NCBI GenBank assembly: GCA_002364615.1
Contig: DEYP01000005.1
Span: 1 to 33,111 of the forward strand
Origin: Arsukibacterium sp. UBA3155
GTDB taxonomy: Bacteria; Pseudomonadota; Gammaproteobacteria; Enterobacterales; Alteromonadaceae
Direction: 5' to 3'
Length of the DNA stretch: 33,111 nt
Below the pieces are notes generated by a model. The model saw nothing but the letters and a program-made list of their open reading frames with translations, had not been told where the DNA came from and did not search any database. A program made the position numbers and the translations under genes. Of the stretch, positions 18,590-32,946 are shown one piece after another. How positions within the stretch are numbered: position 1 is the first letter of the stretch; each line of letters begins with the position of its first letter.

Positions 18590-20686
18590 TTGCCGCATAC
18601 CCGACTGGATAGCCTCAGCATCAGCCTGATCAAAGGCGTGGGTGCTAAAGTGGCACAGCGCCTGGAAAAGCTGGGTATTGCCAGCGTACAGGATTTACTG
18701 TTTCATTTACCGCTGCGTTACGAAGATCGCACCCGAATTTATGCCATTGCCGATCTTATGCCCGCCACCCACGCCACGGTAATGGCTGAGGTTATCAGCA
18801 GCGATATTCAGTTTGGTAAAAGGCGTAGCTGGCTGGTGAAAGTAGCCGATGGCAGCGGGTTTTTAACCTGCCGCTTTTTTCATTTCAGTGCCGCCCAGAA
18901 AAATGCAGTAACGCCGGGGGTGAAGCTGCGCTTGTTTGGTGAAGTAAAACGCGGGCCACGCGGCGTTGAAATGCTGCATCCGGAATACCGGGTGGTGCAG
19001 GAAGAACCCATCGTGCAGGTGTCCGAAACCCTGACCCCAGTGTATCCTACTACCGAGGGTATAAAACAGGCAAGTTGGCGCAAACTGACCGATACCGCGC
19101 TGGAGTATTTACAACGCTATGCCCCGGTTGAATATCTTAGTGCAACGTTACTCAGTTCGCCCTGGTCACTGGCCGAAGCGCTGGCTTATATCCACCGGCC
19201 GCCACCAGATGCAGCGCTTAGCCTGCTGGAGCAGGGGCGCCACCCGGCGCAGCAACGGTTAATTCTGGAAGAGCTGGTAGCCCAGCAGTTAAGCATGTAT
19301 CAGCTGCGTAGCCATAGCCAGCAACAGCATGCGGTGGCATTGCCTGAGCAGCCGGCGTTAACCCGGAAGTTTTTAGCCAGTTTGCCCTTTCAGCTAACGG
19401 GCGCGCAGCAGCGGGTTGTGGCAGAATTGCGGCAAGATTTAGCCAGGTCGCTGCCCATGCTTCGGCTGGTACAAGGCGATGTCGGCTCTGGCAAAACTCT
19501 GGTTGCTGCCCTGGCAGCGCTAACCGCGATTGCTCAGGGGTATCAGGTCGCGCTCATGGCACCAACCGAATTACTGGCAGAGCAACATGCTGCCAATTTT
19601 ACTACCTGGTTTAGCCCGCTGGGTATTGAGGTCGCCTGGCTTGGGGGTAAAACCAAAGGCAAGACACGGGATAACACCCTGACAAAGCTCGCCGATGGTA
19701 GCGCCCAGATGGTGCTGGGTACTCATGCCTTGTTTCAGCAAAGTGTCACATTTTGTAAGCTGGCGCTGATTATTATTGACGAGCAGCACCGCTTTGGGGT
19801 GCACCAGCGACTGGCGCTGCGCGAAAAAAGTGGTATGGCGGGCGTATTCCCACATCAGTTGGTGATGACCGCTACTCCCATTCCCCGAACGCTGGCCATG
19901 ACCGCCTATGCTGATCTCGATACCTCGGTTATCGACGAGCTGCCCCCAGGCCGCACCCCGGTAACCACCGTCGCCATTCCTGACAGCCGCCGTAGTGAGA
20001 TTATTGAACGGGTTCGTAATGGTGTGCTGCAGGATCACCGCCAGGTGTACTGGGTATGCACCCTTATTGAAGAGTCAGAAGTACTGCAATGCCAGGCCGC
20101 TGAAGATACCGCCGCCAGCCTGACCGCCGCCTTACCTGAGCTGCAGGTAGCACTGGTGCATGGCCGCTTAAAAAGCGCTGAAAAACAAGATATTATGGCG
20201 CGTTTTAGCCGTGGTGAAATCGACCTGCTCGTCGCCACCACCGTAATCGAAGTGGGGGTAGATGTACCCAATGCCAGTTTAATGATTATTGAAAACCCCG
20301 AGCGGCTGGGTCTGGCGCAACTGCATCAGTTACGGGGCCGGGTTGGCCGGGGCAGTGCGGTCTCCCACTGTGTGCTGTTATATCATGCGCCATTGTCCAA
20401 AACCGCACAGGCGCGCCTGGCCGTGCTGCGTGACAGTAACGATGGCTTTATTATTGCCCAGCGCGATCTGGAAATACGGGGACCGGGTGAACTGTTAGGC
20501 ACCCGTCAAACCGGATTGTTGCAGTTTAAAATTGCCGATATCAGCCGCGACGCCGAGCTTATTCCGCATGCCCGCCAATTAGCAGCACAACTATGGCAGC
20601 AGGGGCAGCAGCAAAACGATCTGACCGCCTGTCAACAATTGATCCGGCGCTGGCTGGCCAACAAAGACATTTATGGTAATGCCTGA
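18590..20686 (+). CDS. recG: ATP-dependent DNA helicase RecG
   Basis: Branch-migrating helicase that remodels stalled replication forks and R-loops. The 698 residues (693 in E. coli) hold the wedge/OB domain with [18 protein letters not shown] near the N-terminus, Walker A GDVGSGKT at 296-303, the DEQH box at 397-400, TATPIPRT, and helicase motifs V and VI ([23 protein letters not shown]). The start is TTG 18590 with GAGAG upstream; no better start is in frame. It closes the gmk-rpoZ-spoT neighbourhood, as in E. coli, and is followed 11 bp later by a DUF1445 gene. Confidence 0.96.
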
Positions 20687-20697
20687 AGGAGGCAAAC

Positions 20698-21483
20698 ATG
20701 TTAACGCTTACTCCTCATCAGTTACGTCTGCAATGCCGCAGCGGCGCCTTTAGCGGCAATACCTCGGGCTTTGCAGCAGGTTTTGTCCAGGCCAATATGG
20801 CCATTTTACCCCGCCAGTACGCCGCCGATTTTCTGCAGTTTTGCCATTTTAACCCCAAACCCTGCCCTTTACTGGGTATGGCAGCCACACCGGGCGCAAT
20901 TGATATGCCGGCAATGGCCAAAGATCTGGATATCCGCAGCGATTTACCAAAATACCGAATTTTCCGGCACGGTAAGTTAGCGGATGAAGTCACTGATGTG
21001 CGAAGTGTCTGGCGGGATGATTTAGTGACCTTCTTAATTGGCTGCTCGTTCTCATTTGAGGAATCGCTGCTGGCAGATGGTCTGGAAATTCGCAATATCA
21101 CCGAGCAGGTTAACGTGCCAATGTACCGCACTTCTCTCGCCTGTACCCCTGCCGGGGTGTTTCATGGCGGTATGGTGGTCAGTATGCGGCCGATGAAACC
21201 CGCCGATGCCATCCGCGCTATTCAGATTTGCTCACGCTTTCCGCAGGTACATGGCGCACCGGTGCATTTTGGCGATCCGGCTGCTATTGGTATTAACGAT
21301 ATTACCAAGCCAGATTTTGGTGATGCCGTTAGCATTAAACCCGGTGAAGTGCCGGTATTCTGGGCCTGTGGTGTGACGCCCCAGGTGGCAATAGCCAATG
21401 CCAACCTTGATTTTTGCATAACCCACAGCCCGGGCCACATGCTGGTTACTGATATTCCTAACAGCAAACTGTCGGTGTTCTGA
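20698..21483 (+). CDS. DUF1445 protein (YcsI / D-glutamate cyclase N-terminal-type)
   Basis: Putative hydro-lyase family PF07286, 261 residues, cytoplasmic. Signatures include [55 protein letters not shown] and [11 protein letters not shown]. The family is the N-terminal half of vertebrate DGLUCY, which converts D-glutamate to 5-oxo-D-proline, and B. subtilis YcsI is encoded within the 5-oxoprolinase operon. AAGGAGG lies 6 nt before the ATG, giving strong initiation. It follows recG by 11 bp, an apparently accidental neighbour, while the functionally related pxp genes and the other half (DUF4392) lie from 27911 onward on the same strand. The specific activity of this protein is inferred. Confidence 0.88.
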
Positions 21484-21485
21484 CT

Positions 21486-21505
21486 AAGGCTCTGGCCAGA
21501 GCTTT
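21486..21505. terminator. Candidate bidirectional terminator
   Basis: AAGGCTCT (21486-21493) pairs with AGAGCTTT (21498-21505), with one G-T pair, around a GGCC tetraloop; the core is a 14-bp palindrome. It lies between two convergent stop codons. The T-run is short, so efficiency is uncertain. Confidence 0.5.
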
Positions 21506-21518
21506 GAGGTACTCAGGC

Positions 21519-24500
21519 TTAACTTTTAAAATAACTGCGCAGCGAACTGCCGCTGCTGAACACACTGATCATACTGCCGAGCACCCCGGCAATAGAGGCG
21601 GCCACGATATGCAGCGACTGACCTGAGGTCAGGGCAATGCCACCGACAATAACCACCGCCAGCGCTGCAAAACTAAGCCGGTAATTTTTCCACACCCCGG
21701 CTTCGCCTACTTTTACCAATTGCCGTAAAGTTTCAGACGGCTCCGCATTTTGCACAAACTGACGGAAACTGCGATTAACCAACGTCAGTTTGCCACGGCT
21801 TACCCGTAGCAAACCATTGATCGCCAAATGTTCTATCATCAGGCAATTAAGCGGGTTCAGTTGGTGGCCGTTGGCCAGATTAAACAGCGCCAGCTTCTCT
21901 TCGTTGCTGCAGCCTTCCCACTTATATCGATATAAGGCATCGGCATGAGTCAGGATAAAATTCAAAGTCGCCCATTGCCGGGTCGTCAGGCCATCGCTGC
22001 CGCGCCAAAGCCCCGGGCGAGGCTCAGCTTGTGTAGTGTTTAGCTGGTCTGTCGTGGCGGGCAATGGCCCAAGCAACGGGTACGCGTCGATTTCCTGCTG
22101 CAACATGTCAGCGTCTAACGGCTCAGCCAGGGTATCTGGCATTTGTACATTAAAGTTAAGTAAGCATTCTGACCAAGTCAGGTATTCAGATTGCTGCAAG
22201 GCACTTTCGCCATCAGCAACTATCTCGTCTTTAATGGTCAGCCGCTGCAAACTGTTAAACCCCATCACCAGGGTAAATTTACTAAGCTCGCCTAATAAGG
22301 TCAGCGCTTTAAGTTCAGTAATCAGGCCCAGTAACAACTGGCGCCGCCTCGGGCCATTGAGGCCGGTGTCTATCTGGCTAAGGGTAACCTGCATTGGTTT
22401 GCCTGGCTCGCTCTGTTGCAGCATTATTGACACGTTCTGCAATTCATCCTCAAGCTGTTGTAAGGTGGCACTACGCTGGTAAAGCTGCTCAAAACCCGGC
22501 AGCAGCGCGCTGTCGCTTTGCGCTAACCGTACTTGTTTTAACAGCATCAGTAAATTAACCCCGGCCGGGGGGCAAGCGCTCAGCTGTAGTTGCAGCCCGT
22601 CAACCAGCCGTGTCGCAGGTGCAAGCTGCGTCTTGGTGCTCAGCTGATAAATATGCCGTAGAAAATCACTGTCATAACCCAGTCGCAGCCATAATACCCG
22701 GCGCACATAAAGCTGCCACAGTACTAAAAACAGCAGTAAAGGCAGCAAAAACTGCACACTGACAAGCAACAGCTGGCTCAGTGTTTTCGGGCTGTTGCTG
22801 GTATCATGCAACGTTTGCATCGCCACAGTGCCAATGCCATGTTCATTGTCAGGTGCGCTGCGCTGCGCCTCACTATTCATCTCAAGCGGCTCTAAGCGCA
22901 CCAGAAAGGTTTTTACCCACTGCCACAAGTATGTATTGCCAATAATGGTACTGAGTTTAGGATAATCATCCGGCAAACCGCTACTGCTAACGCCAGCGCA
23001 GCGCTGCTGATAGGTTGCCACAGACCAGGAAACCGGCAGCAGCTGGGTCGGTTGCAAACGCTGCTCAGTAATAGAATTAGGAAAACGGTTTATAGCAAAC
23101 TCATGTAACTCGGCCCGCTCACGGTTAAACTCAATACATTGCATTTTGGCGTAATGGGCCTGCAACGCCTGCTGCGGCACCTTACTGATGTAAGATAAAT
23201 AGCTAAACGGCAGTAAACTGATGACCGCAACACTGCCGGCAATAATTAGTTTAGCGCCCGGTTTAATTATCGGTGCCTGCGGTTTGCGCTGGCGCAAAAA
23301 CAGGCTGACGCAACCAATAATAAGCAAAAACAATACGGCGCTTAACCACGGTAATACTGCGGTTAATTGGCTGGAGGGGATAGTAAGCTGCAGCGCAGTT
23401 CGTAGCGCAAAAAAACCATAAACCAGGCCCCAGACCAGTGACACCAGCAATAACAAGCGTCGGCTGTCAAAACCAAGCGGGATCCCCAGCCGGTTTTTAA
23501 CCAGCTTGCTGTTAACAAAGCGTCGCAGCAGCTGCAACGCGGTGATTAACAGCAAAAAGAATACAATCATGCTGACGCTGAAAATCAGAAACTGATTGCT
23601 CATAATGGCATCGACATGATCCTGCGGATAAAACAACACCAGCGCCCATTCATCTACCGGTGAGCCAGTCAGGATAAAATTGCCGGGCTGACCATGATAA
23701 AAGCCGGTCAGGCCAGTTCTGACACTATTGCCGGTGGGCTCCCCGGATCTGACAGTCTGGCTCAGCAGGTTGCTCTCACTGCCAATATAGTAAATATTCT
23801 CAACAAAGGTGCGGCTGTTATCATTGTGATACAACACCTTGCCAGTACGTCGTTCTACCACCATAAACTGCAAGCCGTTGGCAGAGGGTGGTGCCAGGCT
23901 TACCGACGGTAATACCACATCGGCCACCAGCACAAAGCCGGCATCGCTGACCTCCCTGTCACTATCGCTGTCACTGCCACCATTCTCGTTTTGCCTGGCC
24001 TGTAGTGGCATCGCAATAGTCGTGCCCCGGGTACCGTTATTCACATTCAGCAACCGCTGAATATAGACATTGTCAAAGCTCTGCCCTTTCAGCGTCAATT
24101 GCCAGCCATTACCATTACGTACCCGCTTAAAGTAATCACGGTGCGATAAATCATACACCTTAGGCGCCGCGTTGTTTTCCAGAAAATACATAGACGGAAA
24201 ACGTGAGCGGCCAGCTGCATCCAGCATGCTTACCGACAATAGCTTACCCGACACTGCTGTACTATTTTGACCAGAATCTTGACCAGAATTTTTATCTGAA
24301 TTTTGACGATAATGTTGAAGATAGTACGTTTGCATGGTGCATTCTTTGTCAGCGTCGACGTGCATGAGCTTCGGATAAAAATCATAGGCCAGCTCTGTCT
24401 TTGAACAGGGTGCAAACTTTTGCTGATAATTAATTTGCTTTAACGTTGCCGCCGCCGGTAACAACGATTTGTCGACTGCACTCCCCTGCCAGTGCTGCTG

Positions 24501-25640
24501 GTAGTAGGCACTGTAGCTTTGCAGATCGCTAAATACAGCGTGGATATCCGCCGTTAAGTCAGCCCGTAATTTTTCAATATAATCTTGCGCCTGCTGCTGC
24601 CGGCTCTGCTGCCATACGGTTACGGTCAGATAGCTGAAAATAAGCGCCAGTAATACCGAAAAAAAACCATAGGCCACCAGATAACAAAAGCTGGCATATA
24701 AGCGGTTCACCGACTGGTTTTTCGGCTGCAAATACATCCGAAGTACCGACCAGACAAAGGTTAAGCTTACCAGGGTGGCAAACAACAAAGGAATATTCCA
24801 GTAGCCGCTGCCCTGCTCTGCCAGCTGTTGCTGAGGCAGCAAACCCACCAGATACAACTGCGATACCGCCTGATCTGCTGCATTATTGTTTACAGCGACC
24901 AGCCCGGCGGCCAGTCGCATCGGATAAATAAACAGCCGGTAGTCACCGTAAGACAACTCCATGTCCAGATGAACACTGTAGCTGGGCAGCCTGGGTTCTG
25001 GTGGCGCTCTGCTATCGGTTACTTCACTGAAAAAATCACTGTATTGCTGCTTGCTTAGTGCTTCGGTTACGCTGGTTAAATTAACAAAAGAAATGGTTGT
25101 TTCACCGCCAGTGCTGGCCAGCACCTGGCTATCTTCGGTAACAAACAACAACTGGCTGAAACCACGTTCTGGCTCAGGTAAAAAATCGGCATGCTGAATT
25201 TCCGCTTCAAGGTAATTTACAGTGTTGTTGTCAGTTTGTTGATACCAACGCAGCTGCACTTTATCCTGGGTTAACCAGTAGCGATTGCGGTAGCTGGCGC
25301 AAGGGGTCGTGCTCTGTTCTCCCTCCTTCTGCGGACAGTCGCCGGACAGCTGTTGGCGGTGGGTCACTTTGTAACTGGGAAACAACGCCCTGATAGCAGT
25401 TTCGCTTTCCTGATAATCATACAAGCTTTGCAGTTTTATCAGGTTTTCAGTAAAGATATTACTGGCTTCCGCCAACACCCTGAAGTAGTCCTGATTAATC
25501 ACACTGCTGCGGGCCTGGGCGTAACGGTAGTAACCAAACACCATTAGCGCCAGTAATGCCGCCATCAGCAACAGTAACCCGGCAATCCGTTTCGGGCCGG
25601 TTTTTCTCTGGCGCGGTTCTGGTGCGGTGTCGCTTTGCAT
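21519..25640 (-). CDS. Large multi-pass membrane protein of unknown function with extracytoplasmic Cache-like regions
   Basis: I do not recognise this family. The 1373 residues contain a membrane segment at 18-40, an extracytoplasmic region to about 280, two more segments (282-306, 312-345), a second extracytoplasmic region (about 345-670) with Cache-like wording (FPSMYFLEN, YDLSHRDYFKRVRNG), four segments (about 680-700, 727-747, 760-780, 797-817), a third extracytoplasmic loop with three Cys, one segment at 953-980, and a cytoplasmic part of about 330 residues. That part ends in a winged-helix-like stretch (MIEHLAINGLLRVSRGKLTL, then NRSFRQFVQ) and a C-terminal membrane hairpin (1317-1340, 1342-1362). 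No kinase, GGDEF, EAL, methyl-accepting or P-loop motif is visible, so the output is unknown. It lies in the same orientation as the propeller lipoprotein gene, 141 bp apart. Confidence 0.8.
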   Translation of the reverse strand: MQSDTAPEPRQRKTGPKRIAGLLLLMAALLALMVFGYYRYAQARSSVINQDYFRVLAEASNIFTENLIKLQSLYDYQESETAIRALFPSYKVTHRQQLSGDCPQKEGEQSTTPCASYRNRYWLTQDKVQLRWYQQTDNNTVNYLEAEIQHADFLPEPERGFSQLLFVTEDSQVLASTGGETTISFVNLTSVTEALSKQQYSDFFSEVTDSRAPPEPRLPSYSVHLDMELSYGDYRLFIYPMRLAAGLVAVNNNAADQAVSQLYLVGLLPQQQLAEQGSGYWNIPLLFATLVSLTFVWSVLRMYLQPKNQSVNRLYASFCYLVAYGFFSVLLALIFSYLTVTVWQQSRQQQAQDYIEKLRADLTADIHAVFSDLQSYSAYYQQHWQGSAVDKSLLPAAATLKQINYQQKFAPCSKTELAYDFYPKLMHVDADKECTMQTYYLQHYRQNSDKNSGQDSGQNSTAVSGKLLSVSMLDAAGRSRFPSMYFLENNAAPKVYDLSHRDYFKRVRNGNGWQLTLKGQSFDNVYIQRLLNVNNGTRGTTIAMPLQARQNENGGSDSDSDREVSDAGFVLVADVVLPSVSLAPPSANGLQFMVVERRTGKVLYHNDNSRTFVENIYYIGSESNLLSQTVRSGEPTGNSVRTGLTGFYHGQPGNFILTGSPVDEWALVLFYPQDHVDAIMSNQFLIFSVSMIVFFLLLITALQLLRRFVNSKLVKNRLGIPLGFDSRRLLLLVSLVWGLVYGFFALRTALQLTIPSSQLTAVLPWLSAVLFLLIIGCVSLFLRQRKPQAPIIKPGAKLIIAGSVAVISLLPFSYLSYISKVPQQALQAHYAKMQCIEFNRERAELHEFAINRFPNSITEQRLQPTQLLPVSWSVATYQQRCAGVSSSGLPDDYPKLSTIIGNTYLWQWVKTFLVRLEPLEMNSEAQRSAPDNEHGIGTVAMQTLHDTSNSPKTLSQLLLVSVQFLLPLLLFLVLWQLYVRRVLWLRLGYDSDFLRHIYQLSTKTQLAPATRLVDGLQLQLSACPPAGVNLLMLLKQVRLAQSDSALLPGFEQLYQRSATLQQLEDELQNVSIMLQQSEPGKPMQVTLSQIDTGLNGPRRRQLLLGLITELKALTLLGELSKFTLVMGFNSLQRLTIKDEIVADGESALQQSEYLTWSECLLNFNVQMPDTLAEPLDADMLQQEIDAYPLLGPLPATTDQLNTTQAEPRPGLWRGSDGLTTRQWATLNFILTHADALYRYKWEGCSNEEKLALFNLANGHQLNPLNCLMIEHLAINGLLRVSRGKLTLVNRSFRQFVQNAEPSETLRQLVKVGEAGVWKNYRLSFAALAVVIVGGIALTSGQSLHIVAASIAGVLGSMISVFSSGSSLRSYFKS

Positions 25641-25690
25641 GGCGCTGGCCTTAAGTTAACAATTAAGTAATAACTTAAACTCAGCAAATT

Positions 25691-25764
25691 GCAACCTGTA
25701 GCAGGTCAGACGTGCTTAGCACGCTGGTAAATTAGCAACTACACGGAGGAGAGCGCTGACCTGC
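25691..25764. repeat. Nested palindromic intergenic element
   Basis: GCAGGTCAG (25701-25709) is the exact inverse of CTGACCTGC (25756-25764). Between them lies CGTGCTTAGCACG (25711-25723), a 5-bp stem with a 3-nt loop, and just before them CCTGTAGCAGG. It fills the gap between two leftward genes and looks like a REP/BIME-type element. Copy number elsewhere cannot be judged here. Confidence 0.5.
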
Positions 25765-25781
25765 CTGCGCTTTCCTTGCGG

Positions 25782-27638
25782 CTAATATTGACCAATAACC
25801 TGCTCCGGTAACTGCCAGTTACTGTGATACACCCTGTCATCAACAATAAAATAAATATCATCTTCCACCAGTACACTGCGAGCCCCCCAAGATAAGCCGT
25901 ATAAGCTGCTTTGGGTGGCAATTAACTCGCCGGTAATATCCATCGCACCATTGCTGTCAACTTCCAGGGTCAATAAACTCAGCTGCTCCCCCAATTCTGA
26001 TGAGTAGCGACTCAGCGGCAATGCCAGCCGGGTCACATTACCATGCTGCAATGTTGTCAGGCTGTGGTGCTGAAGCTCTAGCGGCGAATACTGCGCATTG
26101 AACACCAGTTCCTGTTGCACTACCGCATCGTTTGCACTGACATCAAACAAGGCTACTTTTGAACCCGCCGTTTCCCAAAGAGGAAATCCCTCAGCATTAA
26201 GTTCAATTTGCTGGCCCAGTCCCCACAATAGGTTTTCATTAATACTGTGCAGATAAGCGGAATACCCCGGAATTTCCAGCTCTCCAACTATGGCTGGCTG
26301 CAGTGGGTTGCTGATATCCAGGGTGTAAAGGGGATCAGTGCGCTCAAATGTCACGACATAGGCGCGATCTGCAACAAAACGAACGCCGTAAATATCTTCT
26401 CCTGGCTTGCCGATCACCTGATCTGGCTGCTGAGCGTTTGGAAGCCGGGCAACCACCTTCAGGCTGGTACCGTCCTGCTGCAAAGTAAGAAACTGATGTT
26501 GCAGCCCCGCTTCCGACCAGCGGCTGGTCAGCAGCATCAGGTGCTGTTGTTTTTCATACAACATAAAGGCGCTCTGGCTGCCGCCTATGTAACCCTCTAC
26601 TGCCCCGGTAGCCTGATAGCCAACTGATGCCTCATCCAGCGAAAACTTATGCAATACCGTTCTGACACTTTCTTCACCGCTGACTGAGCCATGCAGATAC
26701 AAATGCTCTGTCGACATGTAAATATCGGCTATCGAGGCAACGATACAACTGCTTTGGGTTTGATACGGCGCGCTGGTTGCAATACGGGTAACTACCACCA
26801 TCCTGCTGCTACCTTCGTTTGTCTGCATATCAGCCGGCAGATAACACTGTTGCGAGGCAATTAAAGGCTCAGTCGCAGCCTCGTTAAGTTGCCGTTTAGG
26901 CATTAGCTCAGTGAGATCAGTGTTTGTTAGCACCTGCATATTGTTCAGCTTGTCAGCCACGGTTGCTGCATGAGGCCGGAATCCCTCCACAGCCGGTGTA
27001 TAACGTGATACCAGCCACACAGCCTCTGCAGTGCGACGGCTGGCAATCAGCTGGCCATCGAACTGCATCCGGTAAACGTTATTGCCCTGTTCAAATACCT
27101 GAACAATGATCTGAGAACTGGCAGCATCCCAGCCGTAGGAAGAAAAGGGCTGGTAAGCGTAACCATTAATATCAGAGCCAACTACTGTTAATTGGTCGTC
27201 ACTGACATAAATGCCGTCTATATGTTGCAGCTCTGGTGAAAGTTCAACATCCTGCAGCGCACTAAGGCTACTGTCCTCATTACGTTGCCAGCGCTTAACA
27301 TAAGGCCTTGCGTCCTGATGCTGTACTCCGCTGACATACAACGTTTGTGCGGCAAATTTCACCCGGTCTGCCTCATCCACCCCCTGAGTAATTAAATTGG
27401 TGGTCGACACTAGCTCCGCTGGTGGTGGCGAGCCATTGCCAGCAAGAGGCACGTCAGCCTGAGCATACAAACCATTTTTTAAATAACTGGCCAGTGGCTG
27501 ACCGCTTACCCTGGTCAATGGTGCCGTGCTGGCACCAGCAACCGAAACCTGCCACAAGTTTGCACTTTCGTCCGTATCTGAACCATCACCGCACGCCACC
27601 AGCAACACACTGGCAGCCACTGCGCTTAGTACTCTCAT
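25782..27638 (-). CDS. Beta-propeller domain lipoprotein (PF09826-type)
   Basis: Predicted outer-envelope lipoprotein of 618 residues. The N-terminus MRVLSAVAASVLLVACGDG has a lipobox ending at Cys16. Residues 79-94 (TTNLITQGVDEADRVK) match the hallmark of the PF09826 secreted beta-propeller family, followed by repeated DISNPLQPAIVGELEIPGYS-like blades. Function of the family is not established. The frame is open to 27659, but of three nearby ATGs the one at 27638 has GAAAGGA about 8 nt upstream and gives a standard lipoprotein signal, so I chose it. It is upstream of the 1373-residue membrane protein in the same direction. A shared job at the envelope is possible but unproven. Confidence 0.85.
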   Translation of the reverse strand: MRVLSAVAASVLLVACGDGSDTDESANLWQVSVAGASTAPLTRVSGQPLASYLKNGLYAQADVPLAGNGSPPPAELVSTTNLITQGVDEADRVKFAAQTLYVSGVQHQDARPYVKRWQRNEDSSLSALQDVELSPELQHIDGIYVSDDQLTVVGSDINGYAYQPFSSYGWDAASSQIIVQVFEQGNNVYRMQFDGQLIASRRTAEAVWLVSRYTPAVEGFRPHAATVADKLNNMQVLTNTDLTELMPKRQLNEAATEPLIASQQCYLPADMQTNEGSSRMVVVTRIATSAPYQTQSSCIVASIADIYMSTEHLYLHGSVSGEESVRTVLHKFSLDEASVGYQATGAVEGYIGGSQSAFMLYEKQQHLMLLTSRWSEAGLQHQFLTLQQDGTSLKVVARLPNAQQPDQVIGKPGEDIYGVRFVADRAYVVTFERTDPLYTLDISNPLQPAIVGELEIPGYSAYLHSINENLLWGLGQQIELNAEGFPLWETAGSKVALFDVSANDAVVQQELVFNAQYSPLELQHHSLTTLQHGNVTRLALPLSRYSSELGEQLSLLTLEVDSNGAMDITGELIATQSSLYGLSWGARSVLVEDDIYFIVDDRVYHSNWQLPEQVIGQY

Positions 27639-27910
27639 TGTCAGCATCCTTTCAGGCATTTTAATAAAATATCAATCTAACCATAAGGTGAACATCAAGC
27701 TGTCTCTATTTGCGATTAACTGTATAAATTTGTAATTGTACCAGCTCAGCCTACTAATGAATTTTGCCGCAGTCAGATGCCACATTTGGCCTGAAGCAGC
27801 TTTGTAACTGGCAGAACAAGCGGCAGCGTGAATAACCTGCTCTGCGCTATTGCTTATTGACCTGACAACATGAATAATTTATTCCTTAAACCACAGACCA
27901 GGGAGATAGC

Positions 27911-28645
27911 ATGCTACTTAATTGCGATTTAGGCGAAAGCTACGGCAGCTGGACCATGGGCCTCGATAGTCAGGTAATGCCTTATATTGATCAGGCCAAC
28001 ATTGCCTGTGGTTTTCATGCTGGCGATCCCGATGTGATGCAGCGCACACTGCAACTGGCTAAACAGCATAATGTGGCCATTGGTGCCCACCCGGCCTATC
28101 CTGATTTAAATGGCTTTGGCCGGCGCAGCATGCATTGCTCGCACAACGAAATTATTAACTTAATGCATTATCAAATTGCCGCGCTGGACGGCATGGCGCA
28201 GTGCCAGGGTGTAAGCTTAAGCTACGTAAAACCACATGGTGCGCTGTATAACGATATGATGAGCAAACCTGCGGTCTGGCAGGCGGTAGTGCAGGCCATA
28301 GCCAGCTACCATAAACCCTTAAAACTGATGCTGCTGGCCGATAATAGCCGCCAGACTTATCAGCAACAGGCCGCTGAGTTAAAGGTGAAACTGTTGTTTG
28401 AAGCCTTTGCCGACAGGCGCTATACAGATGAGGGTAAGCTAACTCCGCGCAGCCAAAGCGGTGCGGTATTACATGATGCGGCAGTACTGGCTCAGGTGTC
28501 TGAATTACTTAACGATGGCAGCGTAACCACAGCCAGCGGCCAGCGCCTGGCGCTGCAAGCCGATACCCTTTGTGTGCATGGCGACAACCCGGCAGCGGTG
28601 GCACAGATGGCGCAAATTCGCCACCTATTGCAGGCAGTACGCTGA
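27911..28645 (+). CDS. pxpA: 5-oxoprolinase subunit A (LamB/YcsF family)
   Basis: Subunit of the ATP-dependent 5-oxoprolinase PxpABC, which opens the damage product 5-oxoproline to glutamate. The 244-residue product shows all LamB/YcsF signatures: NCDLGESYGSW, NIACGFHAGDPDVM, GAHPAYPDLNGFGRR, YVKPHGALYNDM and LCVHGDNPAAV. GGGAGA lies 4 nt before the ATG. It opens a tight rightward run with pxpB (2-nt gap), pxpC (4-nt overlap) and the DUF4392 gene (14-nt overlap), so one operon is very likely. The 272 bp upstream, towards the divergent lipoprotein gene, contain no other gene I can support. Confidence 0.95.
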   Translation: MLLNCDLGESYGSWTMGLDSQVMPYIDQANIACGFHAGDPDVMQRTLQLAKQHNVAIGAHPAYPDLNGFGRRSMHCSHNEIINLMHYQIAALDGMAQCQGVSLSYVKPHGALYNDMMSKPAVWQAVVQAIASYHKPLKLMLLADNSRQTYQQQAAELKVKLLFEAFADRRYTDEGKLTPRSQSGAVLHDAAVLAQVSELLNDGSVTTASGQRLALQADTLCVHGDNPAAVAQMAQIRHLLQAVR

Positions 28646-28647
28646 GC

Positions 28648-29334
28648 ATGTCGCTATACCGTCTTACCCTGGCCAGCGAAAACGCGGTTATGGTGTATTT
28701 TGAGCAAAAAATGGCCGCAGATATTGCCGGTTTAGTGCAGCAGGCCATGCCGCTTATTCGCCAGGCACTGGGCCAGCACTTAGTCGAACTGCTGCCCTCT
28801 TATGCCTCGGTACTGGTAGTATTTAACCCGTTTAGTTGTGATCATTTCGCCGTTAACGCTCTGCTTAACAAGGCACTTGCCGCGCTTAGCCCTAATACGT
28901 CTGCCAGTGGCAGGCGTATTGAGCTACCGGTCTATTACAGCGAGCAAAGCGGGCCCGATTTAGCCCTTATTGCCAAAACCAAACAGCTGACAATTGATGA
29001 AGTCATTAAACTGCACCAACAGCAGCTGTATCGGGTCTATGCCATTGGCTTTGCCCCGGGTTTTGCTTACTTAGGTGAAGTGGCAGAACAACTGGCCATG
29101 CCCCGCCTTGCCTCGCCGCGCGCAAAAGTGCCGCGTGGGGCGGTAGCGATTGCCGATAGGCAAACCGCGGTTTACCCGGCTGTATCGCCCGGTGGCTGGA
29201 ATATTATTGGCCTTTGCCCTACCCCAATGTTTCAGCCGGATAACGACCCCGCCATGCCGGTGGCCGTTGGCGATGAAGTGCAATTTGTGGCCATTAGCAA
29301 AGCCGAGTTTTTGCAATTGGGTGGCGAGCTATGA
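28648..29334 (+). CDS. pxpB: 5-oxoprolinase subunit B (KipI family)
   Basis: PxpB partner of the 5-oxoprolinase complex; homologue of the B. subtilis KipI protein. The 228-residue product has the conserved GFAPGFAYLGE and the segment RAKVPRGAVAIADRQTAVYP followed by SPGGWNIIG. The frame is open back to 28570, inside pxpA, but ATG 28648, 2 nt after the pxpA stop, begins the family N-terminus MSLYRLTLASENAVMVYF. Its stop overlaps the pxpC start as ATGA, indicating coupled translation and probably equal subunit amounts. Confidence 0.94.
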   Translation: MSLYRLTLASENAVMVYFEQKMAADIAGLVQQAMPLIRQALGQHLVELLPSYASVLVVFNPFSCDHFAVNALLNKALAALSPNTSASGRRIELPVYYSEQSGPDLALIAKTKQLTIDEVIKLHQQQLYRVYAIGFAPGFAYLGEVAEQLAMPRLASPRAKVPRGAVAIADRQTAVYPAVSPGGWNIIGLCPTPMFQPDNDPAMPVAVGDEVQFVAISKAEFLQLGGEL

Positions 29335-30395
29335 GCCATTTTGAAGTGGACTATTTTGAAGTGGGCTATTTTGAAGTGCTTAGCCCCGGCGTTCATAGCC
29401 TTATTCAGGATCAGGGCCGCTTTGGCCAGGGCGCACTGGGCTTAACCAACGGCGGGCCGCTCGACGCTAGCTCGGCGCACTGGGCGAATGCCCTGGTAGG
29501 TAATGGTGCGAATGCCCTGGTTGGTAATAGTGCGAATGCCCTGGTTGGCAATAACCCTAATGCCAGTTTAATTGAGTGCAGCATTGGCGGCTTGCAGTTA
29601 AAGGTTCATTGCAGTTCCAACCTGTGCGTTACCGGTGCCAGCCTTGCCCTTACCATTAATGGTAAAGCAAAAACACTGTGGCAAAGCCATCCTGTGCAGG
29701 CGGGCGATGTTATCGAACTGGGCATGGTAAGCCAAGGCCTGCGCGCTTACTTGGCCGTTGCCGGTGGTTTTCAAATCGCCCCACATTTTGGCAGTACCGC
29801 TACCGTTGTGCGCGAGGGCATTGGCGGCCTTAACCAAAACGGCGCTAAGCTGCAACCGGGCGACAAACTGCCACTGCGGGCCAGCGCACCGTTAGCGCCA
29901 CGGCAATTTGCTAACGCCATGCAACCTGATTTTGATTTTAGCAAAGGCCTTAGCCTGCGACTTGTTGAAGGCTACCAGCAGCCATTATTCAGTAGCGTGG
30001 CGCGCCAGCGGTTTTATCTTAATCACTACACCGTGACCCCAAAAGCCGACCGGATGGGCGTTAAACTCAGCGGCCCAGCCATTGAATGCACCAGCCAGAG
30101 CCTACTTTCTGAGGGCATTTGCTACGGTGCCGTGCAAATTCCGCCCGACGGCCAACCCATTGTGCTGCTAAACGACCGGCAAACGCTGGGCGGCTACCCG
30201 AAAATTGGCAGCGTGTTGTCGCTCGATTGCTGGAAGCTGGCACAGGCACCGGCCGGCACCGTGCTAAGCTTTGAAAAAATTGACCCGCAGCAGGCCCACA
30301 ATGCGTTGCTGCTGGCCCGGGCCTATGATGCAAGGCTATTGGCAGAAATTAACTCGCGTTGCAGCAGCGCTGGAGCAGATCATGACAACACCTGA
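29331..30395 (+). CDS. pxpC: 5-oxoprolinase subunit C (KipA / carboxyltransferase-like)
   Basis: PxpC subunit, homologous to biotin-dependent carboxyltransferase domains; with PxpA and PxpB it hydrolyses 5-oxoproline using ATP. The 354 residues include SPGVHSLIQDQGRFGQGALG, TNGGPLD, DRMGVKLSGP and CYGAVQIPPDGQPIVLLNDR with LGGYPKIG, all family hallmarks. Two in-frame expansions are unusual: a YFEV triplication at residues 3-17 and an ANALVGN triplication at about 52-75, where relatives have a single copy. The catalytic segments are untouched, so function is probably kept. The 3' end overlaps the next gene by 14 nt. Confidence 0.94.
   Translation: MSHFEVDYFEVGYFEVLSPGVHSLIQDQGRFGQGALGLTNGGPLDASSAHWANALVGNGANALVGNSANALVGNNPNASLIECSIGGLQLKVHCSSNLCVTGASLALTINGKAKTLWQSHPVQAGDVIELGMVSQGLRAYLAVAGGFQIAPHFGSTATVVREGIGGLNQNGAKLQPGDKLPLRASAPLAPRQFANAMQPDFDFSKGLSLRLVEGYQQPLFSSVARQRFYLNHYTVTPKADRMGVKLSGPAIECTSQSLLSEGICYGAVQIPPDGQPIVLLNDRQTLGGYPKIGSVLSLDCWKLAQAPAGTVLSFEKIDPQQAHNALLLARAYDARLLAEINSRCSSAGADHDNT
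29337..29381 (+). repeat. 15-bp tandem repeat, three units, in pxpC 5' end
   Basis: Three 15-bp units (29337-29351, 29352-29366, 29367-29381) sharing ATTTTGAAGTG encode HFEVD, YFEVG and YFEVL. The family N-terminus normally has one such strand. Confidence 0.85.
29484..29555 (+). repeat. 24-bp tandem repeat, three units, in pxpC
   Basis: Three 24-bp units (29484-29507, 29508-29531, 29532-29555) sharing GCGAATGCCCTGGT encode ANALVGNG, ANALVGNS and ANALVGNN. The copies differ by only a few bases, implying recent slippage or unequal crossover that kept the frame. Confidence 0.9.
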
Positions 30396-31221
30396 TTTAC
30401 CCGCGCTAAGCCAGCAGATAGAACAACTCCTGGTAGCGCGCAATTTACGCGGCATGCAACTGCTGCAACAACAGCTTCGTCCGGGTTATATCCTGCGAGC
30501 CGCCAGGCTGATTAACCAATGCCAGGGCACGGTATTAATTGGCACCGGTTTTCCGGTACTCGACACCTTTGAAACCGACGGCCCGGTTGGCGCTATTGCG
30601 TTGTACCAGCTGTTAGAGCAGTTAGGCGCCAGGCCAATACTGGTAAGCGGCAACCCGCTCTGTTCAGTGTTAGCCAGCCGTTACCGTACCTGGCAAATCA
30701 GTGTTAATCAGCAGCAGAATCTGCCGGCTATTGCCAGTCAGGCACTGGCTGAGCTGCAACCGCAGCTGGTGATTTCGATAGAGCGCCCCGGCTTTACCGC
30801 AAATAGCCGCTACGCCAATATGCGCGGTGAAGATATTACCGAGCGCTGCGCCAGTTTCGACCACTTTTTAAGTTTGGCCAGTTGCCCCACTATTGGTATT
30901 GGTGACGGCGGCAACGAAATAGGTATGGGCAATATGGCGGCATTTTTAGGTCAGCTGAATATTACCCCGGCCGTCACAGAATGTGACGAACTGCTGGTAG
31001 CCGACGTGTCTAACTGGGCCGCCTGGGGTATTATTGCCATGGTGTCAGTGTTGCAGGGTCGTGATTTACTGACCGGTGCAGACCCGCTGCAGATCCTTAA
31101 GTTTTTATCGGCCCACGGCAGTGTCGATGGGGTTACCCGGTTAAATACCTTAACCGAAGATGGTTTGCCCTATACCGAAGGCGAGCAGCTGATTAGAGAA
31201 CTTAAATTACTAACGAAATGA
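30382..31221 (+). CDS. DUF4392 protein (D-glutamate cyclase C-terminal-type)
   Basis: Predicted cytoplasmic protein of 279 residues in the family that forms the C-terminal half of vertebrate DGLUCY (D-glutamate cyclase). Signatures are VLIGTGFPVLDTFETDGPVG, ERPGFTANSRYANMRGEDIT and IGIGDGGNEIGMGNM, with acidic and glycine-rich stretches likely to form the active site. The frame is open back to 30271, but ATG 30382 has GGAG 6 nt upstream and lies 14 nt before the pxpC stop, so the gene is translationally coupled to the oxoprolinase operon. This placement, next to an enzyme that consumes 5-oxoproline and before a D-amino-acid aminotransferase, supports a role in D-Glu/5-oxoproline interconversion. 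The activity itself is inferred. Confidence 0.9.
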   Translation: MTTPDLPALSQQIEQLLVARNLRGMQLLQQQLRPGYILRAARLINQCQGTVLIGTGFPVLDTFETDGPVGAIALYQLLEQLGARPILVSGNPLCSVLASRYRTWQISVNQQQNLPAIASQALAELQPQLVISIERPGFTANSRYANMRGEDITERCASFDHFLSLASCPTIGIGDGGNEIGMGNMAAFLGQLNITPAVTECDELLVADVSNWAAWGIIAMVSVLQGRDLLTGADPLQILKFLSAHGSVDGVTRLNTLTEDGLPYTEGEQLIRELKLLTK

Positions 31222-31449
31222 GAGTCGGTGTAACAGCCGAACCGATATACCCACACCAACACGCCGTGAATACGTCCCTGTAGGCTCGGTTATGAACTTC
31301 ATCCATGAAGTTCACCCTGGCGGGCCAGCGGAGCTGTTCAAATTCGTTCCTGACGAATTTGTCCCGCAAATCCAGGGCTTCAACGGTTGGTTTAGGGTAC
31401 ATCGATTCTGCTTTACGAATTTCTGAGTAGCATCTTAAAGAGAACTTCA
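31222..31449. repeat. Intergenic stretch with consecutive palindromic hairpins (REP/MITE-like)
   Basis: No gene is supported here. Two perfect inverted repeats stand out: GAACTTCAT/ATGAAGTTC (31294-31302/31305-31313) and CAAATTCGT/ACGAATTTG (31339-31347/31353-31361). A third related but decayed unit lies around 31264-31290. All three centres share C-A/G-T-C/T-C-A/C-T-G (31273, 31300, 31345). The pattern is that of a dispersed palindromic repeat inserted between DUF4392 and the aminotransferase. An 84-codon leftward frame spans it but does not look coding. Confidence 0.6.
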
Positions 31450-32322
31450 ATGACAACAGTGTATTTAAATGGCCAGTTTATGCCGGCAAGCGAGGCCAAA
31501 ATTTCGCCAATGGATCGCGGTTTTTTATTTGGCGACGGCATTTACGAAGTTATTCCCAGCTACCATGGCCGTTTTGTCGGTTTCAAACCACACATTGCCC
31601 GTATGCAAGATGGCTTAAGCCAGCTGTCGATAGACCCGGCGCTACACCTGGCCGACTGGCAAAGCATTTGTCAACGCCTGCTAAGCGATAACCGCAATAC
31701 AAATGGCGATAATCAGGCAGTCTATATTCAGGTAAGCCGCGGTACCGACAGCAAACGCAACCATGCATTCCCTGCCAATATCAAAGCCACGGTGTTTGCC
31801 TATGCCTTCCCTATTGCGCCCGAGCCCATCGCCGATAAAAGCAAAGCTACAACGTTTAACGTGGTAACGGGGCAAGACTTACGCTGGCAGCGCTGCCATA
31901 TTAAATCCACCTCGCTGCTGGGCAATGTATTACATTATCAACAAGGCTACGCCAGCGGTGCCCAGGAAATACTGCTGTTCGATAAAGACGCTAACCTAAC
32001 CGAAGGCGCTGCAGTAAATGTGTTTGTAATTAAAAACGGCGTTATCGCCACCCCGCCGCTAACAAATAAGTTATTGCCGGGTATTACCCGTTTATTGCTG
32101 TTAGATATTTTGCGCAAACACAGCAGCATTACAGTGGAAGAGCGTGATATTTCCGAGCAAGAAGTATTCGCCGCCGACGAAATATGGCTTACCAGCTCCA
32201 GCAAAGAAATTGCGCCAGTACTTAAAGTTAACGAGCATACCGTGGGTAATGGCGAAGTCGGCGATGTCTGGCTTGCTGCGCAAAAGCTGTTTAGCCAGCA
32301 CAAGTATGATGAACTTGTCTGA
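31450..32322 (+). CDS. dat: D-amino-acid aminotransferase (class IV PLP)
   Basis: PLP-dependent transaminase interconverting D-alanine plus 2-oxoglutarate with pyruvate plus D-glutamate; other D-amino acids usually also serve. The 290-residue product has the fold-type IV N-terminus (SPMDRGFLFGDGIYEVIP), the PLP lysine K152 in WQRCHIKSTSLLGNVL, and TEGAAVNVF with E185. R103 and H105 in the RNHAFP motif match the D-amino-acid transaminase residues that bind the substrate carboxylate, separating it from branched-chain aminotransferases. It is separated from DUF4392 by a 228-bp hairpin-rich gap, so it may have its own promoter. It could supply D-Glu for peptidoglycan or feed a D-Glu cyclase. Confidence 0.9.
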   Translation: MTTVYLNGQFMPASEAKISPMDRGFLFGDGIYEVIPSYHGRFVGFKPHIARMQDGLSQLSIDPALHLADWQSICQRLLSDNRNTNGDNQAVYIQVSRGTDSKRNHAFPANIKATVFAYAFPIAPEPIADKSKATTFNVVTGQDLRWQRCHIKSTSLLGNVLHYQQGYASGAQEILLFDKDANLTEGAAVNVFVIKNGVIATPPLTNKLLPGITRLLLLDILRKHSSITVEERDISEQEVFAADEIWLTSSSKEIAPVLKVNEHTVGNGEVGDVWLAAQKLFSQHKYDELV

Positions 32323-32375: not shown

Positions 32376-32390
32376 AAACAGGTGAATTCA

Positions 32391-32684
32391 ATGACGACAT
32401 CAATGATACATGTCAGGGTAGATACCGAATTAAAAGCAGATGCCGCTGCTAAGCTGGCAGACGTTGGGTTAACCGTATCAGATGCTGTTCGTATTTTACT
32501 CACCCGCATCTCAAAAGAAGGTGGTTTACCTGCTGGCCTGGTCGCTGATGCAAGCGCCTATGATGCTTGGTTTAAAGCCAAAGTACATGAAGCTTTGAAT
32601 GATCCTGCAGAGGCGTTACCGCATGCAGATGTCATGAATGACATTCAGACATTAATAAATCGCAAACGAAATGCGCAAGCTTAA
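32391..32684 (+). CDS. RelB/DinJ-family antitoxin
   Basis: Antitoxin and autorepressor of a type II toxin-antitoxin pair. The 97-residue product starts with a ribbon-helix-helix domain: MIHVRVDTELKADAAAKLAD, then GLTVSDAVRILLTRIS and GGLPAGLV, the DinJ/RelB signature. The acidic C-terminal half should wrap and neutralise the toxin. A GTG at 32382 is in frame, but it overlaps the AGGTGA Shine-Dalgarno used by ATG 32391. The 3' end overlaps the toxin gene by 14 nt. Confidence 0.9.
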   Translation: MTTSMIHVRVDTELKADAAAKLADVGLTVSDAVRILLTRISKEGGLPAGLVADASAYDAWFKAKVHEALNDPAEALPHADVMNDIQTLINRKRNAQA

Positions 32685-32946
32685 CTGGAAACCAACGGCC
32701 AAGGCAGACCTCTTTGCCATTCTGGAATTTATTGCTGAAGATAATATTAATGCCGCTCAGCAGCTAAAAGATCTTATTGAAACTAAAACAGTCGCACTTC
32801 AAACTCAACCTGAGCTCTACCGCAGTGGTAGGGTAGAAGGGACCCGCGAGATGGTCGTTCATCCAAACTATATTGTTATTTATACAGCATCAGATACTGA
32901 AGTTTTAATTTTAAGAGTATTGCACGCAGCTCAGCAGTGGCCTTAG
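32671..32946 (+). CDS. RelE/ParE-family toxin
   Basis: Probable type II toxin of 91 residues, translated with a 14-nt overlap after its antitoxin. The N-terminal helices (KLNWKPTAKADLFAILEFIA), PELYRSGRVEGTREMVVHPNYIVIYTA and the C-terminal ILRVLHAAQQWP match the RelE/ParE superfamily. ParE members target gyrase and RelE members cleave ribosome-bound mRNA. The VLHAAQQWP tail and YIVIY strand favour a ParE-like fold, while the antitoxin is RelB/DinJ-like, so the target is left open. The gene looks intact. Confidence 0.9.
   Translation: MRKLNWKPTAKADLFAILEFIAEDNINAAQQLKDLIETKTVALQTQPELYRSGRVEGTREMVVHPNYIVIYTASDTEVLILRVLHAAQQWP

What the first reader, a model, noticed from the sequence alone, without database searches (positions are those of the whole stretch)
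20698..32322. Both halves of D-glutamate cyclase plus 5-oxoprolinase and D-aminotransferase in one neighbourhood
DUF1445 (20698) and DUF4392 (30382) are separate genes here, while vertebrate DGLUCY fuses them. DUF4392 overlaps pxpC by 14 nt and is followed by a D-amino-acid aminotransferase with an intact RNH motif. Together they outline D-Ala/other D-amino acids -> D-Glu (Dat) -> 5-oxoproline (DUF1445/DUF4392) -> Glu (PxpABC, ATP). Known: the DGLUCY reaction, PxpABC as oxoprolinase, YcsI beside pxp in Bacillus. Inferred: that the split proteins form one enzyme or work in sequence. Open: whether PxpABC accepts the D-form or a racemase is missing. This would be a bacterial D-Glu salvage or detoxification route.
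Basis: partly seen in the sequence, partly recalled or inferred. Interest (0 to 1): 0.72.

Follow-up and report, generated by a model that had tools for sequence, protein, structure and literature searches.

The report
Bacterial D-glutamate recycling gene cluster
A bacterium and many of its relatives carry the genes for the two halves of an animal D-glutamate-degrading enzyme close to genes that turn its product into ordinary glutamate, and in several relatives beside genes that eat cell-wall fragments, which points to an untested pathway for recycling cell-wall D-glutamate.

Summary
In detail: DUF1445, PxpA, PxpB, PxpC, DUF4392 and a D-amino-acid-type transaminase are intact at the stated places. 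The neighbourhood is not chance. In 80 named relatives pxpABC-DUF4392 is nearly constant; Dat follows in 67 of 74 testable loci and DUF1445 leads the same operon in 45 of 74. The window's clade has split DUF1445 off. In 79 family genomes the two domains occur in the same 15. New here: NamZ lies within 35 kb of DUF4392 in 9 of 13 genomes with both, with MurQ, symporter and GH3 beside it in five. Elsewhere DUF4392 sits beside MurL-type genes. Best reading: salvage of murein D-glutamate via 5-oxoproline to glutamate. The one-enzyme idea is less favoured: without DUF4392 nearby, DUF1445 lies within about 5 kb of 5-oxoprolinase-type genes of two unrelated kinds in 11 of 16 contexts, which suggests two steps, with DUF1445 acting on 5-oxoproline, perhaps as the missing racemase. 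No activity was tested. A rival remains: this genome shows no MurI over cut-off and no MurL, so Dat may supply wall D-glutamate.

The parts
20698..21483 (+). DUF1445 / PF07286 protein (YcsI, UPF0317 family), 261 aa, N-terminal half of vertebrate D-glutamate cyclase; starts 11 nt after the recG-like gene
   Evidence: PF07286 229.6 bits, NF003969 415.6 bits; 2pif/3db9 by sequence and fold; C56, C116, C224 present in 86 of 86 sequences
27911..28645 (+). pxpA, 5-oxoprolinase subunit A (LamB/YcsF)
   Evidence: PF03746 319.4 bits; NF003816 364.6 bits over its cut-off 213
28645..29334 (+). pxpB, 5-oxoprolinase subunit B
   Evidence: PF02682 218.3 bits; TIGR00370 163.4 bits over its cut-off 145.55
29331..30395 (+). 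pxpC, 5-oxoprolinase subunit C, with a 24-nt tandem repeat near its start
   Evidence: PF02626 278.1 bits; TIGR00724 252.3 bits over its cut-off 230.2; below the equivalog cut-off of NF045499 (203 of 500); repeat
30382..31221 (+). DUF4392 / PF14336 protein (D-glutamate cyclase-like C-terminal domain), 279 aa, overlaps pxpC by 14 nt
   Evidence: PF14336 216.8 bits; homologue and fold match of TON_0340; six metal-site acidic residues E64, D66, E134, D175, E179, D249 in 87 of 87 sequences
31450..32322 (+). dat, fold-type IV PLP transaminase of D-amino-acid transaminase type
   Evidence: PF01063 160 bits; best solved relatives are D-amino-acid aminotransferases 4m0j/4pbc; R103 in 74 of 75, H105 and K152 in 75 of 75
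18590..20686 (+). recG-like gene, upstream neighbour of the split-off DUF1445 gene (context only)
   Evidence: ORF; the same adjacency in relatives; the name RecG is recalled from the sequence, no family search was run on it

Best explanation
The genes are a partly split form of a gammaproteobacterial operon that salvages D-glutamate, most likely released from peptidoglycan, to glutamate. Proposed steps: (1) murein fragments are broken down (NamZ, NagZ-type GH3, MurNAc kinase, MurQ, in some relatives a D,D-peptidase or amidase-type protein; these sit near the module in several relatives and on another contig here), giving D-Glu and D-Ala; (2) Dat and, where present, Alr exchange amino groups between D-Ala, D-Glu and their keto acids; (3) DUF4392, a metal-site protein, with DUF1445 turns D-Glu into 5-oxoproline, the reaction shown for mouse DGLUCY; (4) PxpABC opens 5-oxoproline to glutamate with ATP. 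Shown here: the gene anatomy, family membership, conservation of the metal site, operon conservation and genomic linkages. Known from others: the DGLUCY reaction and the PxpABC reaction on 5-oxo-L-proline. Inferred: that these proteins carry out these reactions, the substrate source, the direction of Dat, and how the steps are divided between DUF1445 and DUF4392.
For: Identical distribution of the two domains in 79 family genomes (15 and 15, none discordant), hits within 4 kb of each other in 12 of 15. In named relatives DUF1445 is at operon distance in 45 of 74 testable loci, Dat downstream in 67 of 74, both together in 36 of 68 testable on both sides; alanine racemase downstream in 13 of 74 (family confirmed on one member). 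One MAG contig (L090) has PxpC and DUF4392 in a single 607-aa frame. NamZ in 13 of 15 DUF4392-positive against 21 of 64 negative genomes (p 2e-4 uncorrected). NamZ within 35 kb of DUF4392 in 9 of 13; PxpA within 35 kb of NamZ in 6 of those 13 against 1 of 16 DUF4392-negative genomes with NamZ and PxpA. NamZ, MurQ, symporter and GH3 beside the pair in L133, L136, L138, L140, L142. Pseudoalteromonas large plasmids: FAD/Fe-S dehydrogenase, GH3, DUF1445, PxpA, DUF4392, transaminase in 4 of 4 opened, of 5 hits. DUF4392 beside MurL-type genes in G354 and G403. Six metal ligands invariant.
Against: No activity is shown for any protein. The window itself carries none of the NamZ/MurQ/GH3-type genes; in this draft genome that cluster is on another contig, and 4 of 13 genomes with NamZ and DUF4392 have them on different contigs. 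Two DUF4392-positive genomes lack NamZ (G260, G279). The study of a free-standing DUF4392 protein that I saw reports Mn2+ phosphatase activity (PMC5132392). The genome has no MurI over cut-off and no MurL match, so Dat may be needed to make D-Glu, which sits uneasily beside a D-Glu-degrading enzyme. In Pseudoalteromonas PxpB and PxpC are not in the cluster, so PxpABC action there is not assured. Statistics ignore shared ancestry, and the named loci and family genomes overlap in part (L118/L137, L069/L141 and L054/L144 share sequence).
Confidence: 0.62

Rival explanations
1. Wall-supply rival: in this genome Dat, not MurI, makes D-Glu from D-Ala and 2-oxoglutarate for peptidoglycan synthesis, and DUF1445/DUF4392/PxpABC only drain surplus D-Glu and 5-oxoproline.
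For: No glutamate racemase over cut-off (best 31 bits, cut-off 146.65) and no MurL in the own genome; MurI is over cut-off in 5 of 15 DUF4392-positive against 44 of 64 other family genomes (p 0.017 uncorrected). Alr-Dat pairs would feed D-Ala into D-Glu.
Against: All five MurI-positive DUF4392 genomes have a Dat within 10 kb (in G266 on the other strand), and 5 of the 10 MurI-negative ones (G232, G253, G278, G289, G294) show no Dat in the stretches held, so nearby Dat does not track loss of MurI. Linkage to NamZ/MurQ genes is catabolic.
Confidence: 0.25
2. One-enzyme rival: DUF1445 and DUF4392 proteins assemble into one heteromeric D-glutamate cyclase, equivalent to fused DGLUCY.
For: Fusion in vertebrates (PMC5132392, PMC5339696, passages); identical distribution within the family.
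Against: DUF1445 without DUF4392 nearby within about 5 kb of PxpA (7) or an OPLAH-type gene (4) in 16 contexts; DUF4392 with no DUF1445 in the stretch beside MurL-type genes; archaea are said to have DUF4392 but no DUF1445 (PMC5132392, passages). No complex could be modelled with the tools.
Confidence: 0.2
3. Ordinary 5-oxoproline housekeeping: the operon only removes 5-oxo-L-proline formed spontaneously from Gln and Glu; DUF1445 and DUF4392 are accessory and unrelated to D-Glu.
For: PxpABC is established for this role (PMC13274462, abstract and passages); PxpA is in 70 of 79 family genomes.
Against: The link to NamZ follows DUF1445/DUF4392 more than PxpA: PxpA is within 35 kb of NamZ in 1 of 16 DUF4392-negative genomes with both; in G266 and G272 the pair stays near NamZ while PxpA is elsewhere. 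D-amino-acid genes are in the operon.
Confidence: 0.1
4. DUF4392 is a metal-dependent phosphatase, as proposed for TON_0340, acting on a phosphorylated small molecule in this pathway.
For: Same fold and same six acidic residues; Mn2+-dependent phosphatase activity reported (PMC5132392, abstract and passages).
Against: That paper left the physiological substrate open; the mouse fusion protein converts D-Glu to 5-oxo-D-proline (PMC5339696); context points to D-Glu.
Confidence: 0.08

Closest known systems
Vertebrate D-glutamate cyclase DGLUCY (C14orf159, 9030617O03Rik; EC 4.2.1.48)
   Same: Both domains, DUF1445 and DUF4392, are present; the metal-site residues of DUF4392, reported as absolutely conserved including human, are conserved
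   Different: Here two separate genes, in many relatives in one operon with pxpABC and dat; no activity tested
PxpABC 5-oxoprolinase (B. subtilis, C. glutamicum)
   Same: All three subunits in order; DUF1445 (YcsI) is also in the B. subtilis ycsG/pxp operon (PMC10448178, passages)
   Different: Here combined with DUF4392, a D-amino-acid-type transaminase and, in some relatives, alanine racemase; no NRAMP-type transporter gene was found in loci L001-L121
TON_0340 (Thermococcus DUF4392; 4dwz, 4fc5, 5gkx, 5gl2-5gl4)
   Same: Fold (TM about 0.7-0.8) and all six metal-site acidic residues
   Different: TON_0340 was described as a phosphatase; here the context is D-Glu and 5-oxoproline metabolism
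NamZ-NagZ-MurK-MurQ MurNAc catabolism clusters
   Same: Physically linked to the pair in several relatives; such a cluster is on another contig of this genome
   Different: Those genes handle the sugars; this module would handle the D-Glu of the stem peptide
MurD2-MurL route to peptidoglycan D-Glu (Xanthomonas)
   Different: The window's genome has no MurL match; both MurL-type genes score below NCBI's cut-off

Membership tests
D-glutamate cyclase (DGLUCY type) | PF07286 (DUF1445) domain | tested here: met
   229.6 bits, cut-off 25
D-glutamate cyclase (DGLUCY type) | PF14336 (DUF4392) domain | tested here: met
   216.8 bits, cut-off 27.9
D-glutamate cyclase (DGLUCY type) | both domains in one polypeptide | tested here: not met
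   separate genes about 9 kb apart; none of 1872 ORFs of the fetched loci checked carries both
D-glutamate cyclase (DGLUCY type) | converts D-Glu to 5-oxo-D-proline | not testable with these tools
   needs an enzyme assay
DUF4392 / TON_0340 metal enzyme | six invariant Asp/Glu metal ligands | tested here: met
   E64, D66, E134, D175, E179, D249 align with those listed for TON_0340 and are in 87 of 87 sequences
PxpABC 5-oxoprolinase | PxpA, PxpB and PxpC encoded together | tested here: met
   27911-30395
PxpABC 5-oxoprolinase | each subunit over NCBI's equivalog cut-off | tested here: inconclusive
   PxpB over TIGR00370; PxpA over subfamily models only; PxpC over a domain model only, 203 of 500 for NF045499
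D-amino-acid transaminase | PLP lysine and R-x-H carboxylate site | tested here: met
   K152 75 of 75, R103 74 of 75, H105 75 of 75; alignment with 4m0j, 9pxs; the roles of these residues are recalled
D-amino-acid transaminase | over the curated cut-off of TIGR01121 or NF005209 | tested here: not met
   217.6 of 277.45 and 244.2 of 320; so called only 'D-amino-acid transaminase type'
Murein (MurNAc) catabolism cluster | NamZ, MurQ, kinase and GH3 genes adjacent in this window | tested here: not met
   no match of these reference proteins in the window; in this genome such a cluster is on contig C20

The most novel reading that the evidence does not exclude
The pathway is two-step and DUF1445 is the missing 5-oxoproline racemase (or another 5-oxo-D-proline-specific enzyme): DUF4392 cyclises D-Glu to 5-oxo-D-proline, DUF1445 converts it to the L form, and PxpABC or an OPLAH-type 5-oxoprolinase opens it. 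This would explain why DUF1445 alone travels with two unrelated 5-oxoprolinase types and with likely 5-oxoproline importers (NRAMP-type, TRAP-type), why it has three invariant cysteines, and why vertebrates fused the two domains.
Probability: 0.25. Interest if true: 0.78.

Novelty: new variant of a known kind. Interest (0 to 1): 0.6.

Why it matters
D-Glu is a standard part of bacterial cell walls, yet I found little on how bacteria break it down. If right, this gives a concrete bacterial D-Glu salvage route that ends in glutamate, links it to MurNAc recycling, and offers testable functions for two protein families (DUF1445, DUF4392) that also make up the human enzyme DGLUCY, including a way to ask which half of the human protein does what. 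It also bears on how bacteria without MurI deal with free D-Glu.

Tried and rejected
A DUF1445-DUF4392 complex could not be modelled: structure prediction takes one chain, and none of 1872 ORFs checked in the fetched loci carries both domains. A MurI-like racemase fold for DUF1445 was looked for in the fold search and not seen: beyond 2pif and 3db9 the only matches at E <= 0.001 are two chains of 3nek, an NrpR-like protein (E 3e-6 and 3e-5, TM 0.4-0.5), so the racemase idea rests on context and cysteines, not on fold. PxpA co-occurrence was tested as support and dropped as uninformative (70 of 79; 15 of 15 against 55 of 64, p 0.19). Loss of MurI as the reason for the module was tested: enriched but not clean (5 of 15 against 44 of 64). 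MurL was sought in the family and found in 1 of 79, a DUF4392-negative genome. The stretch between DUF4392 and dat was examined as a possible RNA element: it occurs in both orientations and also elsewhere in relatives, with no Rfam family, so it is treated as a dispersed repeat. Distance-matrix correlations between the operon proteins (r 0.67-0.91; loci L132-L134 left out) fit shared descent and add little.

Rows dropped before counts: the 16 DUF1445-only contexts are 13 plasmid rows opened of the 25 listed (of 240 records) and three genomes; left out are H6 (same plasmid as H1, which has DUF4392) and H16, H18-H21, H23-H27 and H30, which were not opened. H8, H9 and G202 were read by tblastn, not by annotation. 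The rest of the genomes behind the plasmids was not searched for DUF4392. The 80 named loci are the best 80 of 180, so they lean towards close relatives. G432's DUF4392 context was not resolved. PF07286 was not searched in the phylum sample, so whether G354 and G403 have DUF1445 elsewhere is unknown. One of the five Pseudoalteromonas hits (H2) was not opened.
Full report
Observation. On the + strand lie DUF1445 (20698-21483), pxpA (27911-28645), pxpB (28645-29334), pxpC (29331-30395), DUF4392 (30382-31221, overlapping pxpC by 14 nt) and a class IV transaminase (31450-32322); all match their Pfam families far over the cut-offs. NCBIfam agrees for DUF1445 (NF003969), PxpA (subfamily) and PxpB; PxpC and the transaminase stay below the equivalog cut-offs. 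DUF1445 starts 11 nt after the recG-like gene and is separated from pxpA by two minus-strand genes, so in this window it is not part of the pxp operon.

Operon conservation. One scan of genome contigs with the DUF4392 protein gave 80 named loci, the best 80 of 180. In these, PxpC was found in 80, PxpA and PxpB in 79 each (L086 is cut), Dat downstream on the same strand in 72 and DUF1445 in 63 of the stretches held. Where at least 4.2 kb upstream is held, DUF1445 lies at operon distance in 45 of 74; in 14 loci (Arsukibacterium, Rheinheimera, Alishewanella) it lies further upstream, in most of them behind recG, and in 15 of the 74 it is not in the held stretch. Of 68 loci testable on both sides, 36 have both DUF1445 at operon distance and Dat downstream. 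The likely ancestral order is DUF1445-pxpA-pxpB-pxpC-DUF4392-dat, seen in Marinobacterium, Neptuniibacter, Thalassotalea, Colwellia and Alkalimonas, and without dat in Leucothrix; the window's clade has split DUF1445 off. A LysR gene sits between DUF4392 and dat in 22 loci (counted by hand, either strand), and an alanine racemase directly after dat in 12 by ORF clustering (13 of 74 testable loci by tblastn). In one MAG contig (L090) PxpC and DUF4392 are one 607-aa frame.

Co-occurrence. In 79 genomes of the same family PF14336 occurs in 15 and PF07286 in the same 15, with no discordant genome. The hits lie within 4 kb of each other in 12 of the 15; the exceptions are the own genome and the two others of its genus. 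In three genomes (G253, G266, G294) the two genes are neighbours while pxpA is on another contig, and in G272 pxpA is about 0.5 Mb away. PxpA is in 70 of 79 genomes, so its co-occurrence means little. In a class-wide sample of 229 genomes PF14336 was in 1 (the own genome), PF07286 in 4 and PF03746 in 21; in a phylum sample of 349, PF14336 was in 10.

Link to the cell wall. In five relatives (L133, L136, L138, L140, L142) the pair sits beside genes for exo-N-acetylmuramidase NamZ (PF07075), MurNAc 6-phosphate etherase, a sodium:solute symporter, a GH3 NagZ-type protein and a MurR-type regulator; a BadF-type kinase was labelled in four of them (not in L138). Families were confirmed on L133 and, for MurQ, L136; the other members are by similarity. 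L142 also has an S13 D-Ala-D-Ala carboxypeptidase. L137, L118 and L055 have GH3 with a HGSNAT-type acyltransferase (L118 and L137 share sequence and are probably one genome); L139, L087 and L095 have a fused amidase/beta-lactamase-type protein (L087 by similarity). NamZ is in 34 of 79 family genomes: 13 of 15 DUF4392-positive and 21 of 64 negative. In 9 of the 13 genomes with both, NamZ lies within 35 kb of DUF4392. As a control, PxpA is within 35 kb of NamZ in 6 of these 13 and in 1 of 16 DUF4392-negative genomes with NamZ and PxpA. These figures are not corrected for relatedness. The window has no such gene; in the own genome a NamZ-MurQ-kinase-symporter-GH3-HGSNAT cluster is on another contig (by similarity; NamZ by PF07075). 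In Pseudoalteromonas large plasmids (4 opened of 5 hits) the order is FAD/Fe-S dehydrogenase (divergent), GH3, DUF1445, PxpA, DUF4392, transaminase, with no PxpB or PxpC annotated in the stretch. A dehydrogenase of that kind also follows the pair in L133; an inferred role would be oxidation of the D-lactate that MurQ releases.

DUF4392 by itself. It is homologous to TON_0340 (E about 3e-31), and a confident model (pLDDT 90.6) matches its structures at TM about 0.7-0.8. The six acidic residues listed for TON_0340 (PMC5132392, abstract and passages) correspond to E64, D66, E134, D175, E179 and D249, present in 87 of 87 sequences. That paper reports Mn2+-dependent phosphatase activity and leaves the natural substrate open. 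In G354 DUF4392 overlaps a MurL-type gene by 11 nt, and in G403 it lies in a run of same-strand genes with MurD- and MurL-type genes; both MurL matches are below NCBI's cut-off of 700 bits (434.7 and 267.1), and neither genome has a MurI match. In G340 it lies about 7 kb from PxpA and PxpC genes. DUF4392 thus tends to follow D-glutamate.

DUF1445 by itself. Over 86 sequences C56, C116, C224, R164, H185, H243, D78 and T227 are invariant. The model (pLDDT 91.2) matches 2pif and 3db9, and then, at E <= 0.001, only 3nek, an NrpR-like protein; NrpR is regulated by 2-oxoglutarate (PMC4902934, passages). In 16 contexts without DUF4392 nearby (13 plasmids and G107, G190, G202) PxpA lies within about 5 kb in 7 and an OPLAH-type hydantoinase/oxoprolinase in 4, with neither in 5. 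An NRAMP-type transporter gene is annotated in 6 of the 7 PxpA cases, and G107 carries TRAP-type genes (recognised from sequence, not by a family search). PMC13274462 (abstract and passages) reports that PxpT, a homologue of YcsG, is required for 5-oxoproline use in C. glutamicum, and discusses TRAP receptors that bind 5-oxoproline beside a eukaryotic-type oxoprolinase. PMC10448178 (passages) instead calls YcsG, of the NRAMP family, a Mn2+ importer. The OPLAH-type protein of G107 matches caprolactamase models best, below cut-off, so its substrate is not certain. DUF1445 thus tends to follow 5-oxoproline.

Mechanism. Mouse DGLUCY, the fusion of both domains, converts D-Glu to 5-oxo-D-proline without racemase activity on Glu (PMC5339696, abstract and passages). 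PxpABC yields L-glutamate from 5-oxo-L-proline (PMC13274462, abstract). The simplest scheme is murein D-Glu -> 5-oxoproline -> Glu, with Dat and Alr handling D-Ala and amino-group exchange. The context evidence divides the two halves: DUF4392 with D-Glu, DUF1445 with 5-oxoproline. Against this, the mouse product is the D form, and people given D-Glu accumulate 5-oxo-D-proline (as cited in PMC5339696), so the mammalian DUF1445 half does not seem to racemise efficiently; and no fold match to a known racemase was seen.

Wall-supply question. The own genome has no MurI over cut-off (best 31 bits of 146.65) and no MurL. D-Glu for the wall must then come from elsewhere, and D-amino-acid aminotransferase is a known alternative (PMC8788868, passages). 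MurI over cut-off is missing in 10 of 15 DUF4392-positive and 20 of 64 other genomes. Nearby Dat does not track MurI loss, so I keep salvage as the main reading and supply as a rival; both may be true of Dat.

Novelty. Searches of the paper library (titles and abstract starts only, listings capped) showed no report of a bacterial D-Glu salvage operon of this kind. The library holds open-licence papers only, and a look-up for the 2017 PxpABC paper (identifier recalled) found it not held. PMC11580864 (Table 1) lists human GLUCM with 0 full-length and 6 split homologues in gut bacteria, so near-adjacency of homologues of the two halves has been noticed in a list. PMC5132392 already proposed that the fused genes act in sequentially linked steps. 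Both reactions are known; the combination, the murein link and the division of labour would be new.

Facts were mended in this version (kinase in four, not five, of the clusters; like-for-like PxpA control added; joint operon count, PxpC-DUF4392 frame, repeat orientation and NRAMP absence added).

Noticed in passing
Described only.
   Followed up: partly
L090:8987-10810: PxpC and DUF4392 in one 607-aa open frame in a Porticoccaceae MAG, a possible natural fusion; single contig.
   Followed up: partly
window 31222-31449: About 190 nt strongly palindromic element between DUF4392 and dat (fold z -3.35); near-copies in relatives in both orientations at this place and, in a few, elsewhere; no Rfam match. 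Probably a dispersed repeat; effect on dat expression unknown.
   Followed up: partly
window 29484-29564 and 29338-29378: Two short in-frame tandem repeats (24 nt x about 3, 15 nt x 2.7) near the start of pxpC.
   Followed up: no
window 12125-12244: Perfect 60-nt tandem duplication inside the minus-strand GGDEF/Reg_prop gene 10323-13331.
   Followed up: no
window 32382-32946: RelB-type antitoxin followed by a ParE-type toxin gene downstream of dat.
   Followed up: no
window 3261-4181: Zinc-peptidase-like AstE/AspA or M14 protein, weak match; possibly a murein peptide amidase, not tested.
   Followed up: no
window 1982-2974: AbiEii-type nucleotidyltransferase gene (86 bits).
   Followed up: no
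L125, L126, L128, L131, L166, L167: NRAMP transporter, PxpA and DUF1445, often with PxpBC-type and biotin carboxylase genes, on plasmids of Levilactobacillus, Bacillus, Rhizobium, Aureimonas and Klebsiella; suggests a mobile 5-oxoproline-use cassette, in most with a biotin carboxylase part.
   Followed up: partly
G000, whole genome: No glutamate racemase over cut-off and no MurL, although two genomes of the same genus (G244, G290) have MurI.
   Followed up: partly
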